Source: Hoyosella subflava DQS3-9A1 | GTDB lineage: Bacteria; Actinomycetota; Actinomycetes; Mycobacteriales; Mycobacteriaceae | DNA length: 64,000 nucleotides | Direction of reading: 5' to 3' | NCBI RefSeq assembly: GCF_000214175.1 | Contig: NC_015564.1 | Coordinates: 4,526,001 to 4,590,000 of the forward strand | In this document: piece by piece, positions 27,351-49,796 of the stretch | Layout of the letters: every line of letters begins with the position of its first letter | Numbering within the stretch: position 1 is the first letter of the stretch | Made by a program: the position numbers and the translations under genes | The notes under the pieces: generated by a model | The model's input: only the letters and a program-made list of their open reading frames with translations | Databases searched by the model: none | What the model was told of the DNA's origin: nothing

Positions 27351-30300
27351 TCACGGTGCAGTCAGGAAACGGTTCAGCACGGGCGCGATCTCAGCAATCG
27401 CCTTGGGGTGCGTCATTTCCAGGTGCCCGACCGGGACTTCGTTGACGTACACAGCCCCCGTGACAAAGGGACGCCACGTTGCTGCCGCTCGGCCATTCGG
27501 GTGACCAGCGTTCGCGTCGTCAGTGGCCGAGAAGAAGACGACGTCGCCTTCGAATACGCCCGGCCGGTACTGCTCGATGATCTGCCCGGCGGAGGCAAAG
27601 CTGTCGATGATGTGGTCCGCCTGTTCGGCAGTGAACATGTGGGACTGCACGACCTTCCCCCGGATTATGTCGAGGACCTCTTGCTTCGTTGTGGCACGAA
27701 CAACGCGGTCAAGACCGAAAAGGTCGCGCCATCCGCCAAGCAGGTCCTCGAACGAATCCGGAATATCCGCCGGGTCCGGCACGTGCGGATCCGGTTCGAG
27801 GGTGCTGTCGAACACCGCAAGCAAAGCAACTTCCTCACCGTCTGCTTGCAGAGTCACGGCCATCGCGTGTGCGATGACACCGCCGAACGACCAGCCCAGC
27901 AGGTGATAGGGCCCGTGCGGCTGAACCCGCCGTATCTCCGCGATGTACCGGCGTGCGTACTCTTCAACTGAACTCGGCATCGGTTCGCCCGCGACGACGT
28001 GAGGATCCTGCAGCCCGTAGACCGGCCTCCCAGGGTCAATATGGCCGATCAGCGCACCGAAGAACCATGCGAGCCCGCTCGCGGGGTGAATGGCAAACAG
28101 CGGCAGCCCCGGCCCTCCCCTCCGCAGCGGCAGCAGAACTTCGAACCCGGACTGATCGCTCGCGGAATGAGTTGCGGAATCGGCCCCAAGTCGCCGCGCT
28201 AGCGAAGTGGGGGTCGGGTCCGAGAACATCCACTGCAGCGGTACGGACAACCGGTGCCGGGACTCCAGCATCGCGACGAAGCGAGAAGCGGCAAGGGAAT
28301 TGCCCCCTATCTCGAAGAACGAGTCGAACGCACCCACCCGCGGAACGTTCAGCAGCTCCGCGAAAACGCTGGCAATCTTTCGTTCGAGCGCAGTTCGCGG
28401 CGCAACGAACTGTGTGCGCGGTGTCACCGCGTCGAGCACGGGAAGCCGCTTACGGTCCAGTTTGCCTGTGTTCCCCAGCGGCAACGCATCAAGCACTACC
28501 AACTCGCCGGGCACCATGTATTCGGGCAATAGGCGTCGCGCACCGGCGAGCACCGTGTCCGCATCGAACTCTCCCTTTTCGGGAACCACGAAACCGGTCA
28601 GTCGCTCCGAACCGCGACCGCGAACAGCGTCGACGCGTACCGCCGCGTGCACGACGCCTCGTTGCCGCGAGAGCACTGACTCGATTTCCTCCAGTTCGAT
28701 ACGCAGCCCACGCAATTTGACCTGCAGGTCTACGCGGCCGACGCATTCGATTTCACCGTTGCGATTGACGCGCGCGAGGTCGCCTGTCCGGTACAGCCGA
28801 CTGCCCACGGGCCCGTTCGGATTCGCAATAAAGTGGGTGGCGGTCAAACCGGTCCGTGCTACGTACCCGCGAGCAAGCTGGGGGCCGCTGACGTATAGCT
28901 CACCGATCACACCTCGTGGCACACGCTTGAGTCGACGATCAAGAATGTATACACCGCAGTCGGCCTCAGCCTCGCCGATGGGTACGGATGCCCACTCTGT
29001 CGCTGCGTGCGTGACGTCGCGCAGATGCGTGATACTCACAGCGGCTTCAGTGGGCCCATAGAGGTTGTGAAGTTCAGCCGGACAGATCGCACGGAACCGG
29101 TCGGCAAGCCGCGCTGGCAACGGCTCGCCAATGCACAGGACGTGCTGCAGCGACGAACATCGCCCAGCTTCCGCGGTATCCAGATATGCGGCGAGCAAGG
29201 ATGGCACGAAAGGCGCTGTCGTTACGGAGAACTCGCTCATGAGTGCCGCAACCGAACGGGGGTCCCGATGCTCTCCCGCCTCCGCGATGACGACGCGCGC
29301 ACCCGCCGCCAGCGGCCACCAAATCTCCCAGACAGAAAGATCGAAGGTCGCGGGTGTCTTCCAGAGCATCGTGTCCGCTGGACCGATGGGGTACTCGGAT
29401 TGCATCCAGGTGATCTGATGAGCGACAGCCGCATGTGGCACCGCCACACCCTTGGGCTCGCCCGTCGAACCTGACGTGAAGATGATGTAGGCGAGATCGA
29501 GTGGCCGCAGCGGACGAGTTCGTTCGGCCCTCGTGACTGGCGCAGAGGAATAGTGCGGAAGCTCCCGCTCCAGGAACGTGATCCGGACTGTATCTGCAGG
29601 TAGCTGTACCCCGTCATCCGCGACCACGTGCCCGACGCCGGCCACGTGCATCACGTGCGCGATGCGCTCCGGGGGATGCTCGATATCGAGAGGTACGTAG
29701 GCCGCACCACATTTCATCACCGCATGGAGGACCGTTAGCATCCGCTCCGAGGGCCGCATCGCGATACCCACGGTGTGTCCTGGGCCAAGACCGCACGCAA
29801 TAAGTCGCCGCGCAAACTGATTCGCACGAGCATGAAAATCCCGGTAGGTGCGGGCCCCGTCCCTGCCCACGAAAGCCAGCAAATCCGGGGTCCGTTGCGC
29901 CTGGTGTTCGAACATCTCCACGAGCGTTCCGTACTCCGCTGTCAGCTCAGGGGTTTCGCGCTCTAAGGCCGGCACTAGCTCGAGGTCACCGACTATGGCA
30001 TGCACGTCCGCGCAGATAGCGTCCAGCACACGGTTCAGCAACGCAGCAAATTCAAAGGCAGTGTCGCGATCGAACAGCGCTTCGGAATACGTAAATGCCA
30101 CCGGCAGCGAGCTACCCTCCGAGTGATCAACCACCATGAGATGCAGGTCGAACTGGGATACACCTATCTCATGGTCCACGATGTTTGCCTGCAGTCCTGG
30201 CAGCGAAAACTCTTCGGGCGTCAGGTTGTGGAAGGAATACGCGACGTTGAAGAGCGGACTGTGCGCGGTCGAACGTGGCGGGTTCAGCGCCTCGACGAGT

Positions 30301-31316
30301 TGCTCGAAAGGCAGCTCGGTATGGGTAAAGGCGCTGATATCCCGTTCACGCACATGGGCGAGCAGCTCAGCGAAACTCCCGCTTGTGTCTACCTGTGTAC
30401 GAAGCACCAGCGTGTTGGCGAACATCCCGACGAGATCATCGAGGGCCCGCGGCCCGCGGCCCGAGATCGGTGTACCGACGCAGATGTCGCTGCTCCCAGA
30501 CAGGCGCGCAAGCAGTGCCACGTACGCCGCGTGTAGCACCATGTAGAGCGTCGACTGATGGTCTTGTGCCAGCATCCTCAGCTGCTGTGCGGTGTGTGCC
30601 GGAAGCTCGAACCGAACCGTGCCGCCTTGAGCGGACGCTACCGCTGGGCGCGGCCGATCCGTCGGCAGACTGAGCAAGTCAGGAGCTCCAGTGAGTGCAT
30701 TGCGCCAATAGTCGATCTGCGCTGCGGCAAGAGATGAGGGATCGTGGGGGTCCCCCAGGACGTCACGCTGCCACATCGCGAAGTCGGCGTAGTGCACCGG
30801 CAAGGGAACCCACTCGGGCTCGCCGCCGCGTATCCGTGCGGCGTATGCGCTCATCACATCGCGAGCAAGCGGACCCATCGACCCGCCGTCCGCGCTGATG
30901 TGGTGGACAACGATCAGCAGTACGTGCTCGGTTGCCGCGAGCCGGAATAGGCACAGGCGCAGCGGCACAGCCCGTGAGACGTCAAAGCCGGCGGAGGCGT
31001 TGCGGCGTAGCGCCTCGTCCAGCTCCTGTTCCCCGCTAACCGCGACAGTTTCCAGACGCACACGAGTGGGCTCCGGCTCAAGCACTTCCTGATATCCGAC
31101 GCCATCACGGGAGGGATACACGGTCCGCAGTGTCTCGTGCCGGGCAACCACGTCCCTGAGTGCGGCGTCGAGCGCGGTCCGATCGAGCGGGCCGCTCAAC
31201 CGGACCGCTAGTGAAATGTTGTAGGCCGGTGATGCCGGGTCCAGCTGATTCAGAAACCACATCCGCGTCTGTGCGAGGGATAGTGGCACGAACTCACCGC
31301 GGGGTTGCGGTACCAA
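27351..31316 (-). other. NRPS module 6: C6, A6, T6, thioesterase
   Basis: C6 starts near 6168 with HHISADG. A6 covers about 6626-7095 and differs from the other five ([20 protein letters not shown]); its pocket reads roughly D-L-W-P-L-I-L-V-S. T6 is GGNSL at about 7167. The thioesterase, about 7215-7481, has GWSFGG with the nucleophile Ser near 7303, an Asp in AVFDSTLEP and His in VGHLEM. It would release the peptide by hydrolysis or ring closure. Confidence 0.88.
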
Positions 31317-49300: not shown

Positions 49301-49796
49301 CGCGGAGCGCGGCGTTGTAGATCTCCGCGATCCGCTCGGTGATGACGAGACCCCCATACCCGTCCGTGGCGATGTGGTGAATCTTCGAATACCAGAAGTA
49401 GCGGTCATCGGCGATCTGCAATAGACACGCTCGCGCAAGCACATCGTGCGCCAGGTCCATCGGTTCGCTGAAGTCGCGCTGCATCCAGGCCTGAGCAGCT
49501 GATATCGCATCTCGCTCCGCACGCAGGTCGACGACTTCAAGCCGGTGCACGCGTGCGGCATCCACGTATTGGCAGGGCTCGCCGGCCACCTCGACCACTT
49601 TCAGTGACGGCGACCCGAACTCATCGCTCGCTCGCTGAATCGCGGCCTGCAGCGCGCCAGTGTCGATGGCGCCGCGAATCTCCACGTAATGCGCCATGAC
49701 CAGCGGCAGACCGCCAGCACGTTTTTCCGTGAACCAGATTCCGTATTGCGCGGAAGACAAGGGGAACTGCGCTGCCTCATCAATCGGACCGGCCAC
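27351..49796 (-). CDS. Six-module non-ribosomal peptide synthetase
   Basis: A single 7,481-residue protein that would assemble a hexapeptide on carrier domains. The domain order is C-A-T-E, C-A-T, C-A-T-E, C-A-T, C-A-T, C-A-T-TE. Carrier serines are at about 1002, 2533, 3560, 5079, 6116 and 7167, and the thioesterase serine (GWSFG) at about 7303. All condensation domains keep HHxxxDG, and all adenylation domains keep the [11 protein letters not shown] loop (FTSGSTG in module 6) and the late catalytic Lys (GKxDR or GKVNR). The condensation domains after the two epimerases are of the kind that accept D-residues, so the plan is self-consistent with D residues at positions 1 and 3. I start at GTG 49796: GGAGGG lies 5 bases before it, while the longer GTG 49826 has no ribosome site. 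The leading C domain implies an N-terminal acyl or aryl cap. No MbtH, transporter or tailoring gene is adjacent. Confidence 0.96.
31317..34451 (-). other. NRPS module 5: C5, A5, T5
   Basis: C5 starts near 5122 ([17 protein letters not shown]) with HHIAADG. A5 covers about 5582-6050 with pocket D-A-L-F-I-G-A-V-W, one residue from A3 and A4. T5 is GGDSL at about 6114-6117. The nearly equal openings of C5 and C6 point to recent module duplication. Confidence 0.87.
34452..37571 (-). other. NRPS module 4: C4 (D-accepting), A4, T4
   Basis: C4 starts near 4080 ([14 protein letters not shown]) and has HHVLLDG, matching the epimerase before it. A4 covers about 4540-5020 with pocket D-A-L-F-V-G-A-V-W, the same nine residues as A3. 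T4 is GGDSL at about 5077-5080. Confidence 0.87.
37572..42086 (-). other. NRPS module 3: C3, A3, T3, E3
   Basis: C3 starts near 2575 ([17 protein letters not shown]) with HHIAADG, the ordinary L-accepting form. A3 covers about 3035-3500 with pocket D-A-L-F-V-G-A-V-W. T3 is GGDSI at about 3558-3561. E3 covers about 3610-4070 with [18 protein letters not shown] and FNYLG; its core motif reads HHFAVDV, with Val in place of the usual Gly. Residue 3 is expected in D form. Confidence 0.87.
42087..45236 (-). other. NRPS module 2: C2 (D-accepting), A2, T2
   Basis: C2 starts near 1525 with [14 protein letters not shown] and carries HHLLLDG, the form found after epimerase domains. A2 covers about 1990-2480; its pocket reads D-A-M-F-V-G-A-I-W. 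T2 is GGDSL at about 2531-2534. No epimerase follows, so residue 2 keeps the L form. Confidence 0.87.
45237..49796 (-). other. NRPS module 1: starter C, A1, T1, E1
   Basis: C1 covers about residues 1-435 with HHIATDG at 140-146; its segment [27 protein letters not shown] resembles first condensation domains of siderophore synthetases such as EntF and of lipopeptide synthetases. A1 covers about 455-930; pocket residues read by hand against GrsA are D-A-L-F-G-G-V-M-W. T1 is GGDSI at about 1000. E1 covers about 1055-1515 with [25 protein letters not shown] and FNYLG, so residue 1 should become D. Confidence 0.88.

What the first reader, a model, noticed from the sequence alone, without database searches (positions are those of the whole stretch)
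27351..49796. Orphan six-module NRPS predicted to make a capped hexapeptide with D residues at positions 1 and 3
The domain order is read directly, and the D-accepting condensation domains stand exactly after the two epimerases, so the gene is intact and coherent. The first condensation domain (EntF/lipopeptide-starter-like) has no partner module before it. From knowledge of such systems this means a fatty acid or aryl acid, supplied in trans, starts the chain. The product does not match any peptide I can name, such as the tetrapeptide core of glycopeptidolipids.
Basis: partly seen in the sequence, partly recalled or inferred. Interest (0 to 1): 0.85.

Follow-up and report, generated by a model that had tools for sequence, protein, structure and literature searches.

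The report
Single-gene six-module lipopeptide synthetase
One giant bacterial gene encodes an assembly line that very probably makes an unknown fatty-acid-capped chain of six amino acids; it is an ordinary kind of gene for this bacterial family, but a close relative lacks just this gene at the same place, which offers a natural comparison for finding the product.

Summary
Window 27351-49796 (-) is one open NRPS gene, Cs-A-T-E / C-A-T / C-A-T-E / C-A-T / C-A-T / C-A-T-TE, six modules. A tree of 94 C/E domains puts C1 in the starter clade with RzmA-Cs and EntF, C2 and C4 with domains that follow an epimerase (DCL), and C3, C5, C6 with LCL.

The cap is more likely fatty acyl than aryl. EntF groups with another starter domain of this genome, one beside its only DHB-AMP ligase over cut-off. 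C1 has Gly at the acyl-length gate, where EntF has Phe.

Two corrections. E2 has lost the Gly of HHxxxDG (V), kept in the other 19 of 20 epimerases compared, so D at residue 3 is less sure. Pockets 1-5 are alike and hydrophobic; no substrate can be named.

New: in sister genome G002 (flanks 94-96% identical) the gene is absent from this site, with ribosome-binding site, start codon and final bases still there, probably a deletion. The adjoining genes persist in both relatives, so they are unlikely cluster partners. Such lipopeptide NRPSs are common in related bacteria (PMC5550956). New member of a known kind; interest modest.

The parts
27351..49796 (-). NRPS gene, six modules, 7481 aa from GTG 49796 (7491 aa if read from GTG 49826)
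48501..49769 (-). C1, starter condensation domain ([10 protein letters not shown]; Gly at the acyl-length gate)
46968..48434 (-). A1, pocket DALFGGVMWK
46683..46925 (-). T1
45258..46631 (-). E1, epimerase, [11 protein letters not shown] intact
43890..45173 (-). C2, DCL clade
42366..43820 (-). A2, pocket DAMFVGAIWK
42102..42326 (-). T2
40767..42065 (-). C3, LCL clade
39291..40703 (-). A3, pocket DALFVGAVWK
39009..39245 (-). T3
37602..38951 (-). E2, epimerase clade, motif HHFAVDV (Gly to Val), EGHGR intact
36240..37508 (-). C4, DCL clade
34734..36179 (-). A4, pocket DALFVGAVWK
34464..34688 (-). T4
33132..34427 (-). C5, LCL clade
31629..33065 (-). A5, pocket DALFIGAVWK
31335..31583 (-). T5
29991..31292 (-). 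C6, LCL clade
28467..29939 (-). A6, pocket DLWPLILVSK (different class from A1-A5)
28182..28424 (-). T6
27354..28166 (-). TE, type I thioesterase, GWSFGG
27359..49793 (.). segment (about 22,435 bp) absent from sister genome G002; one edge lies at the gene's start codon, the other within 10 bp of its stop
49794..49808 (-). GTG start and GGGAGGG ribosome-binding site, both still present in G002 without the gene

Best explanation
A stand-alone, single-gene lipohexapeptide synthetase. C1 takes a fatty acyl group, most likely a medium to long acyl-CoA from primary metabolism (or acyl-ACP), and joins it to the residue loaded by module 1. E1 turns that residue D, and C2 (DCL) passes it on. Modules 2-5 add hydrophobic residues through pockets that are nearly alike; E2 should turn residue 3 D, with reservation, and C4 (DCL) expects that. 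Module 6 adds a residue of another class, and TE releases the product as an acid or a ring. Shown by sequence: domain order, starter/DCL/LCL/E classes, catalytic motifs intact apart from E2's glycine, no NRPS partner gene nearby. Inferred: acyl cap, residue identities, release mode, any role (surfactant, envelope lipid or antibiotic). The gene looks like a long-term resident of the genome and was probably deleted in the sister species.
For: C1's four best PDB molecules are RzmA-Cs (217 bits), EntF (181), ObiF1 (174) and CDA-C1 (167), all starter type (roles partly recalled); next are VibH at 95 and TycC at 85. C2 and C3, searched alike at E 1e-30, do not list RzmA or EntF. In the tree C1 lies in the 25-row starter clade (support 100) and in a 6-row subclade (99) with the C1s of three six-module NRPSs and two starter domains not read further. 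The gate residue is Gly in C1; RzmA mutants with smaller residues there take C8 or C10 chains (PMC7804268 section 7). EntF groups (97) with the first C of the 146-kb NRPS, beside the only DHB-AMP ligase over the family cut-off. None of 36 other window frames scanned with Pfam is an NRPS, acyl-AMP ligase or carrier (3 of the 36 had no match). Tetranucleotide distance to the flanks is 0.125, the same as left versus right flank; 0.324 for a relative's NRPS.
Against: No product is known. E2's G-to-V change may impair epimerisation. The acyl-length inference carries a rule from two enzymes of Paraburkholderia rhizoxinica to a distant domain (RzmA-Cs is unresolved at the base of the starter clade). 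Expression was not tested. The quick tree leaves 38 of 91 inner forks open. No orthologue is known, so purifying selection could not be measured.
Confidence: 0.75

Rival explanations
1. The cap is an aryl acid (2,3-dihydroxybenzoate or salicylate) brought by a carrier protein in trans, as in enterobactin.
For: EntF and ObiF1 rank second and third in the PDB for C1; the genome has one DHB-AMP ligase over cut-off.
Against: That ligase lies at C3:142895-144463, next to another NRPS whose own first C groups with EntF (97) and, like EntF, has Phe at the gate; C1 has Gly and sits in a different starter subclade. The two loci are 0.3 Mb apart if the contig is circular and 4.4 Mb if not.
Confidence: 0.08
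2. A fatty acid is activated by a fatty acyl-AMP ligase encoded elsewhere and delivered on a carrier protein, rather than as free acyl-CoA.
For: PMC5550956 (passages) notes acyl ligases in some rhodococcal NRPS families (19 of 79) and that they may lie outside the cluster; PMC7804268 does not exclude acyl-ACP.
Against: No such ligase or carrier among 36 window frames scanned; RzmA-Cs and HolA-Cs work with acyl-CoA in vitro. The rest of the genome was not searched for such ligases.
Confidence: 0.2
3. E2 is dead, so residue 3 is L (or a mix), and C4 tolerates it.
For: HHFAVDV in place of HHxxxDG; the other 19 of 20 E domains compared keep DG; longest end branch in the E clade (1.14).
Against: The second His and EGHGR, named as the E active site in PMC7551626 (one passage), are intact; C4 is a DCL domain; among 126 C/E rows with HHxxxD, 8 lack the glycine, so the change also occurs in other domains of the superfamily.
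Confidence: 0.35
4. The gene is a recent insertion in the window's lineage, and the sister shows the original empty site.
For: Only 1 of 3 genus genomes has it at this site; the slot holds an aldehyde dehydrogenase gene in G001; closest C1s are 49-51% identical.
Against: G002 keeps the ribosome-binding site, the start codon and the last 8 to 10 bases of the gene at the junction; composition equals the flanks'.
Confidence: 0.25

Closest known systems
Starter-C lipopeptide synthetases such as rhizomide/holrhizin (RzmA, HolA) and CDA synthetase
   Same: N-terminal starter C domain of the same clade as RzmA-Cs; HHxxxDGYG as in RzmA
   Different: Different taxon and overall sequence; gate residue Gly where RzmA has Arg and HolA Ala; product unknown; module orders not compared by any search
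Six-module starter-C NRPSs of G433 and G434 (genomes holding the Nocardia macrotermitis and N. bovistercoris loci) and of unnamed G428
   Same: Single protein, six modules, TE; C1 49-51% identical and in one clade (99); modules 1-2 43-44% identical for the two Nocardia loci
   Different: E after modules 1-4 (G428, G434) or 1, 2, 4 (G433), not 1 and 3; a long insert inside A6 of all three and A3 of G433 (possibly a methyltransferase; not searched); other pockets, with a Thr-type module 4
Rhodococcal lipopeptide NRPS families, including humimycin (PMC5550956)
   Same: C-starter NRPSs, mostly without known product, strain-specific families common (passages)
EntF and catecholate siderophore NRPSs
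   Same: First C is a starter-type domain; TE at the end
   Different: C1 not in the EntF subclade, gate residue Gly not Phe, no aryl-activating gene nearby
Glycopeptidolipid synthetases Mps1/Mps2 and M. avium subsp. paratuberculosis lipopentapeptide (recalled)
   Same: Acyl-capped D/L peptides of related bacteria (recalled)
   Different: Four or five residues with tailoring gene clusters (recalled); no such cluster among the window frames scanned

Membership tests
Modular NRPS | Repeated C-A-T modules with intact motifs and a TE | tested here: met
Starter-C lipopeptide synthetase | First C clusters with starter domains and not with LCL/DCL | tested here: met
   definition from PMC1894796 passages
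Starter-C lipopeptide synthetase | First C uses a fatty acyl donor | not testable with these tools
   Only indirect: Gly at gate
Starter-C lipopeptide synthetase | No upstream module or partner NRPS gene beside it | tested here: met
   One search lists no other condensation match within about 390 kb upstream in coordinates or on to the contig end; 36 window frames scanned. A distant partner acting in trans is not excluded, but the clade of C1 speaks against it.
Aryl-capped (EntF-like) NRPS | First C groups with EntF; aryl ligase and carrier in the cluster | tested here: not met
D residue at position 1 | E1 intact and followed by a DCL domain | tested here: met
D residue at position 3 | E2 intact and followed by a DCL domain | tested here: inconclusive
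   C4 is DCL, E2 lost the motif glycine
Same compound as a MIBiG entry | Same module order and pockets | not testable with these tools
   No MIBiG or antiSMASH; a search for five pocket strings found 0 papers

The most novel reading that the evidence does not exclude
A new lipohexapeptide scaffold, acyl-D-X-X-D-X-X-X-Y, in which five of six residues are the same or closely similar hydrophobic amino acid: a nearly homopolymeric D/L amphiphile made by one gene with no cluster partners, and lost cleanly in a sister species, so that two close relatives differ in it.
Probability: 0.35. Interest if true: 0.5.

Novelty: new member of a known kind. Interest (0 to 1): 0.33.

Why it matters
As an enzyme it is ordinary for its family, but it is a tractable one. 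The whole pathway seems to be a single gene, and a sister genome whose flanks are 94-96% identical lacks it at this site. Comparing extracts of the two species could point to the product before any gene is deleted, although the two genomes differ elsewhere too (for example window 12274-15138). It also adds a group of starter domains that share a Gly at the gate (6 of 6 rows of the subclade), useful for testing whether that residue predicts acyl length outside Paraburkholderia.

Tried and rejected
Pocket codes: the first extraction was off by one at positions 299 and 301; it was redone and then gave textbook codes (recalled: Thr DFWNIGMVHK, Ser DVWHFSLVDK, Asp DLTKVGHIGK, Val DAFWLGGTFK) elsewhere in the same alignment. 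The codes of A1-A6 match none that I recall, and five strings of the A2-A5 type gave 0 papers (A1 and A6 not searched), so I name no residues.

Recent module duplication inside the gene: rejected, A1-A5 are only 49-54% identical to each other.

Recent foreign origin by composition: not supported.

Adjoining genes as cluster partners: rejected for TetR/ADH and the nuo side, which persist in G002 and G001 without the NRPS. Not every window gene persists: 12274-15138 is missing from G002 too.

Literature: searches listed nothing on this gene (titles and abstract starts only, apart from the papers named; one search gave 0 papers; one search was about E domains). Naming the organism: not achieved; Hoyosella was a guess from GC and size (recalled), not tested. 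As its genus has only 3 held genomes, I infer it is not Mycobacterium. Structure prediction was not run, as sequence placement was already clear.

E-domain comparison: the 20 were picked by the pattern HHxxxDxxSWR. One epimerase of this genome (5630-aa NRPS) has NHxxxDG and so was left out; it keeps DG.

Tree caveats: 94 of 128 gathered C/E rows were used; the 34 left out are 20 from loci L010, L011, L013, L014, L015 and 14 from L019, L021, L023, L024 and this genome's C3:3825 kb domain. Position labels were automatic: against the clades, 22 of 23 'first C', 17 of 17 'C after E', 17 of 19 'E' and 29 of 31 'other C' rows fell where expected; the remaining 4 rows are 2 'end of frame' and 2 references.
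Full report
Observation. The window is G000:C3:4526001-4590000 of a 4.86-Mb genome in a genus with three held genomes. A single frame runs from 49826 to 27351 on the minus strand. Pfam and session HMMs give C1 A1 T1 E1 - C2 A2 T2 - C3 A3 T3 E2 - C4 A4 T4 - C5 A5 T5 - C6 A6 T6 TE. Carrier serines, A10 lysines, the TE serine motif and HHxxxD in all eight C/E domains are present. The description is right.

What kind of C domains. C1's best PDB molecules are RzmA-Cs (217 bits), EntF (181), ObiF1 (174) and CDA-C1 (167), all starter type (roles partly recalled); VibH and TycC (85) follow. 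As controls, C3 hits 5u89 and PCP-C didomains best, and C2 hits PvdL, McyB and SrfA-C; neither lists RzmA or EntF at 1e-30. A tree of 94 of the 128 C/E rows gathered gives four clades: E (19 rows), DCL, starter and LCL. C1 is starter, C2 and C4 are DCL, C3, C5 and C6 are LCL, E1 and E2 are E. The tree is a quick one, with 38 of 91 inner forks open.

The cap. In PMC7804268 (passages; section 7) the residue at RzmA R148 sets acyl length: Arg C2, Met C6 (CDA), Ala C8 (HolA), and smaller mutants up to C8 or C10. C1 has Gly there; EntF and the first C of this genome's 146-kb NRPS have Phe. EntF groups with that other domain (97), and the only DHB-AMP ligase above the family cut-off lies beside it at C3:142895-144463. 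So the genome's aryl chemistry seems to belong elsewhere, and a medium or long acyl cap is favoured. This extends a rule from two enzymes and is inference.

D residues. E1 is normal. E2 reads HHFAVDV; the other 19 of the 20 E domains compared (picked by HHxxxDxxSWR) keep DG. Over all 126 C/E rows with HHxxxD, 8 lack the glycine. The second His and EGHGR, given as the E active site in PMC7551626 (one passage), are intact in E2, and C4 is DCL. D at residue 1 is well supported; D at residue 3 is probable.

Residues. Pocket codes (positions recalled): A1 DALFGGVMWK, A2 DAMFVGAIWK, A3 and A4 DALFVGAVWK, A5 DALFIGAVWK, A6 DLWPLILVSK. A1-A5 are 49-54% identical to one another and 34-37% to A6. Their codes suggest the same or similar hydrophobic residues, but no substrate is assigned; A3's best PDB relative is linear gramicidin synthetase LgrA. 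A6 resembles DLWHLILVSK modules of another NRPS of this genome and of Rhodococcus globerulus.

Surroundings. Right: nuoA to nuoL and a further antiporter-type subunit. Left: TetR, zinc alcohol dehydrogenase, a glycoside hydrolase, a two-component pair, a TipAS-type MerR regulator, a GMC oxidoreductase, an acyl-CoA dehydrogenase, and at the far end sugar uptake and polyol genes. Among 36 window frames scanned (3 without a match) there is no second NRPS, acyl-AMP ligase or carrier; the transporter parts seen are of a solute-binding uptake system 25 kb away. One MbtH is in the genome, at C3:696014.

Presence and absence. In G002 the two flanks are 94% (15139-27360) and 96% (49790-52563) identical to the window and abut. 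The junction keeps the ribosome-binding site, the GTG start and the last 8 to 10 bases of the gene with one change, and lacks about 22,435 bp. The contig is 1.12 Mb long, and neither C1 (best 39%) nor TE (best 42%) has an orthologue elsewhere in G002. In G001 the slot holds an aldehyde dehydrogenase gene (Pfam E 5.6e-90) split between two frames. The leftover ribosome-binding site and start, and a composition equal to the flanks, favour deletion in G002 over insertion here. Three genomes cannot settle it. G002 also lacks window 12274-15138, so the NRPS is not the only difference.

Relatives. In 401 family genomes (drawn evenly from a larger group; at most 4 first-look candidates scored per genome in the rows shown), 2 besides the own genome match C1 at E <= 1e-123, with 50-51% identity. 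The genome-contig scan gave 18 loci, best 50%. Three relatives whose NRPS was read in full (G428, G433, G434; the latter two hold the Nocardia macrotermitis and N. bovistercoris loci) are also six-module single proteins, with other E positions and pockets and a long insert within A6. With a looser cut-off (1e-40) 39 of 81 genomes, own included, have C1-like domains.

Known context. PMC5550956 (passages): 69 of 79 rhodococcal NRPS families show lipopeptide hallmarks, most rhodococcal clusters have no known product, and strain-specific families are common. PMC1894796 (passages) defines the starter C class and counts EntF in it. So the kind is well known. MIBiG could not be searched; 'no known product' rests on the searches only.

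Verdict. A new member of a known kind: a stand-alone lipohexapeptide synthetase of unknown product. Interest is modest, raised by its one-gene pathway and its natural loss in a sister species.

Noticed in passing
window 12274-15138 (+): A 2.9-kb stretch with a GMC oxidoreductase frame (13342-15102) and a frame without Pfam match (12339-13349) is missing from G002 at the matching place, and G001 does not align there either.
   Followed up: partly
L039 (G001:C14), about 16200-17500: An aldehyde dehydrogenase gene occupies the NRPS slot in G001; it is split between two frames, a frameshift or a sequencing error.
   Followed up: partly
G000:C3:142895-159779: DHB-AMP ligase beside a two-protein NRPS (2544 and 1495 aa) whose first C groups with EntF: a likely catecholate siderophore cluster. 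The second protein's first C falls in the DCL clade, as expected after the epimerase that ends the first.
   Followed up: partly
G000:C3:464649-501805 and 4141874-4163986: Two further starter-C NRPS loci (6761 + 5630 aa; 7388 aa), with C1-type or TE matches in comparable frames of the other two genus genomes; the frame with the 5630-aa protein's TE is shorter there (5015 and 4564 aa).
   Followed up: partly
G000:C3:483001-503000 (L045), epimerase of the 5630-aa NRPS: This epimerase reads [11 protein letters not shown]: the first His of HHxxxDG is Asn.
   Followed up: no
G000:C3:696014-696166: The genome's only MbtH gene stands apart from the NRPS genes found, between an ABC transporter frame and a TMEM164-family frame.
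   Followed up: partly
G000:C3:3048148-3049401: Free-standing 464-aa C domain (HHLVADP) in the starter clade, with frames of the same size in G001 and G002; perhaps an acyltransferase.
   Followed up: no
window 15174-15929 (-): MerR regulator with a TipAS antibiotic-recognition domain, conserved in G002 and G001.
   Followed up: no
window 17804-18922 (+): A 372-aa frame without any Pfam match, overlapping the histidine kinase gene on the other strand; may not be a gene.
   Followed up: no
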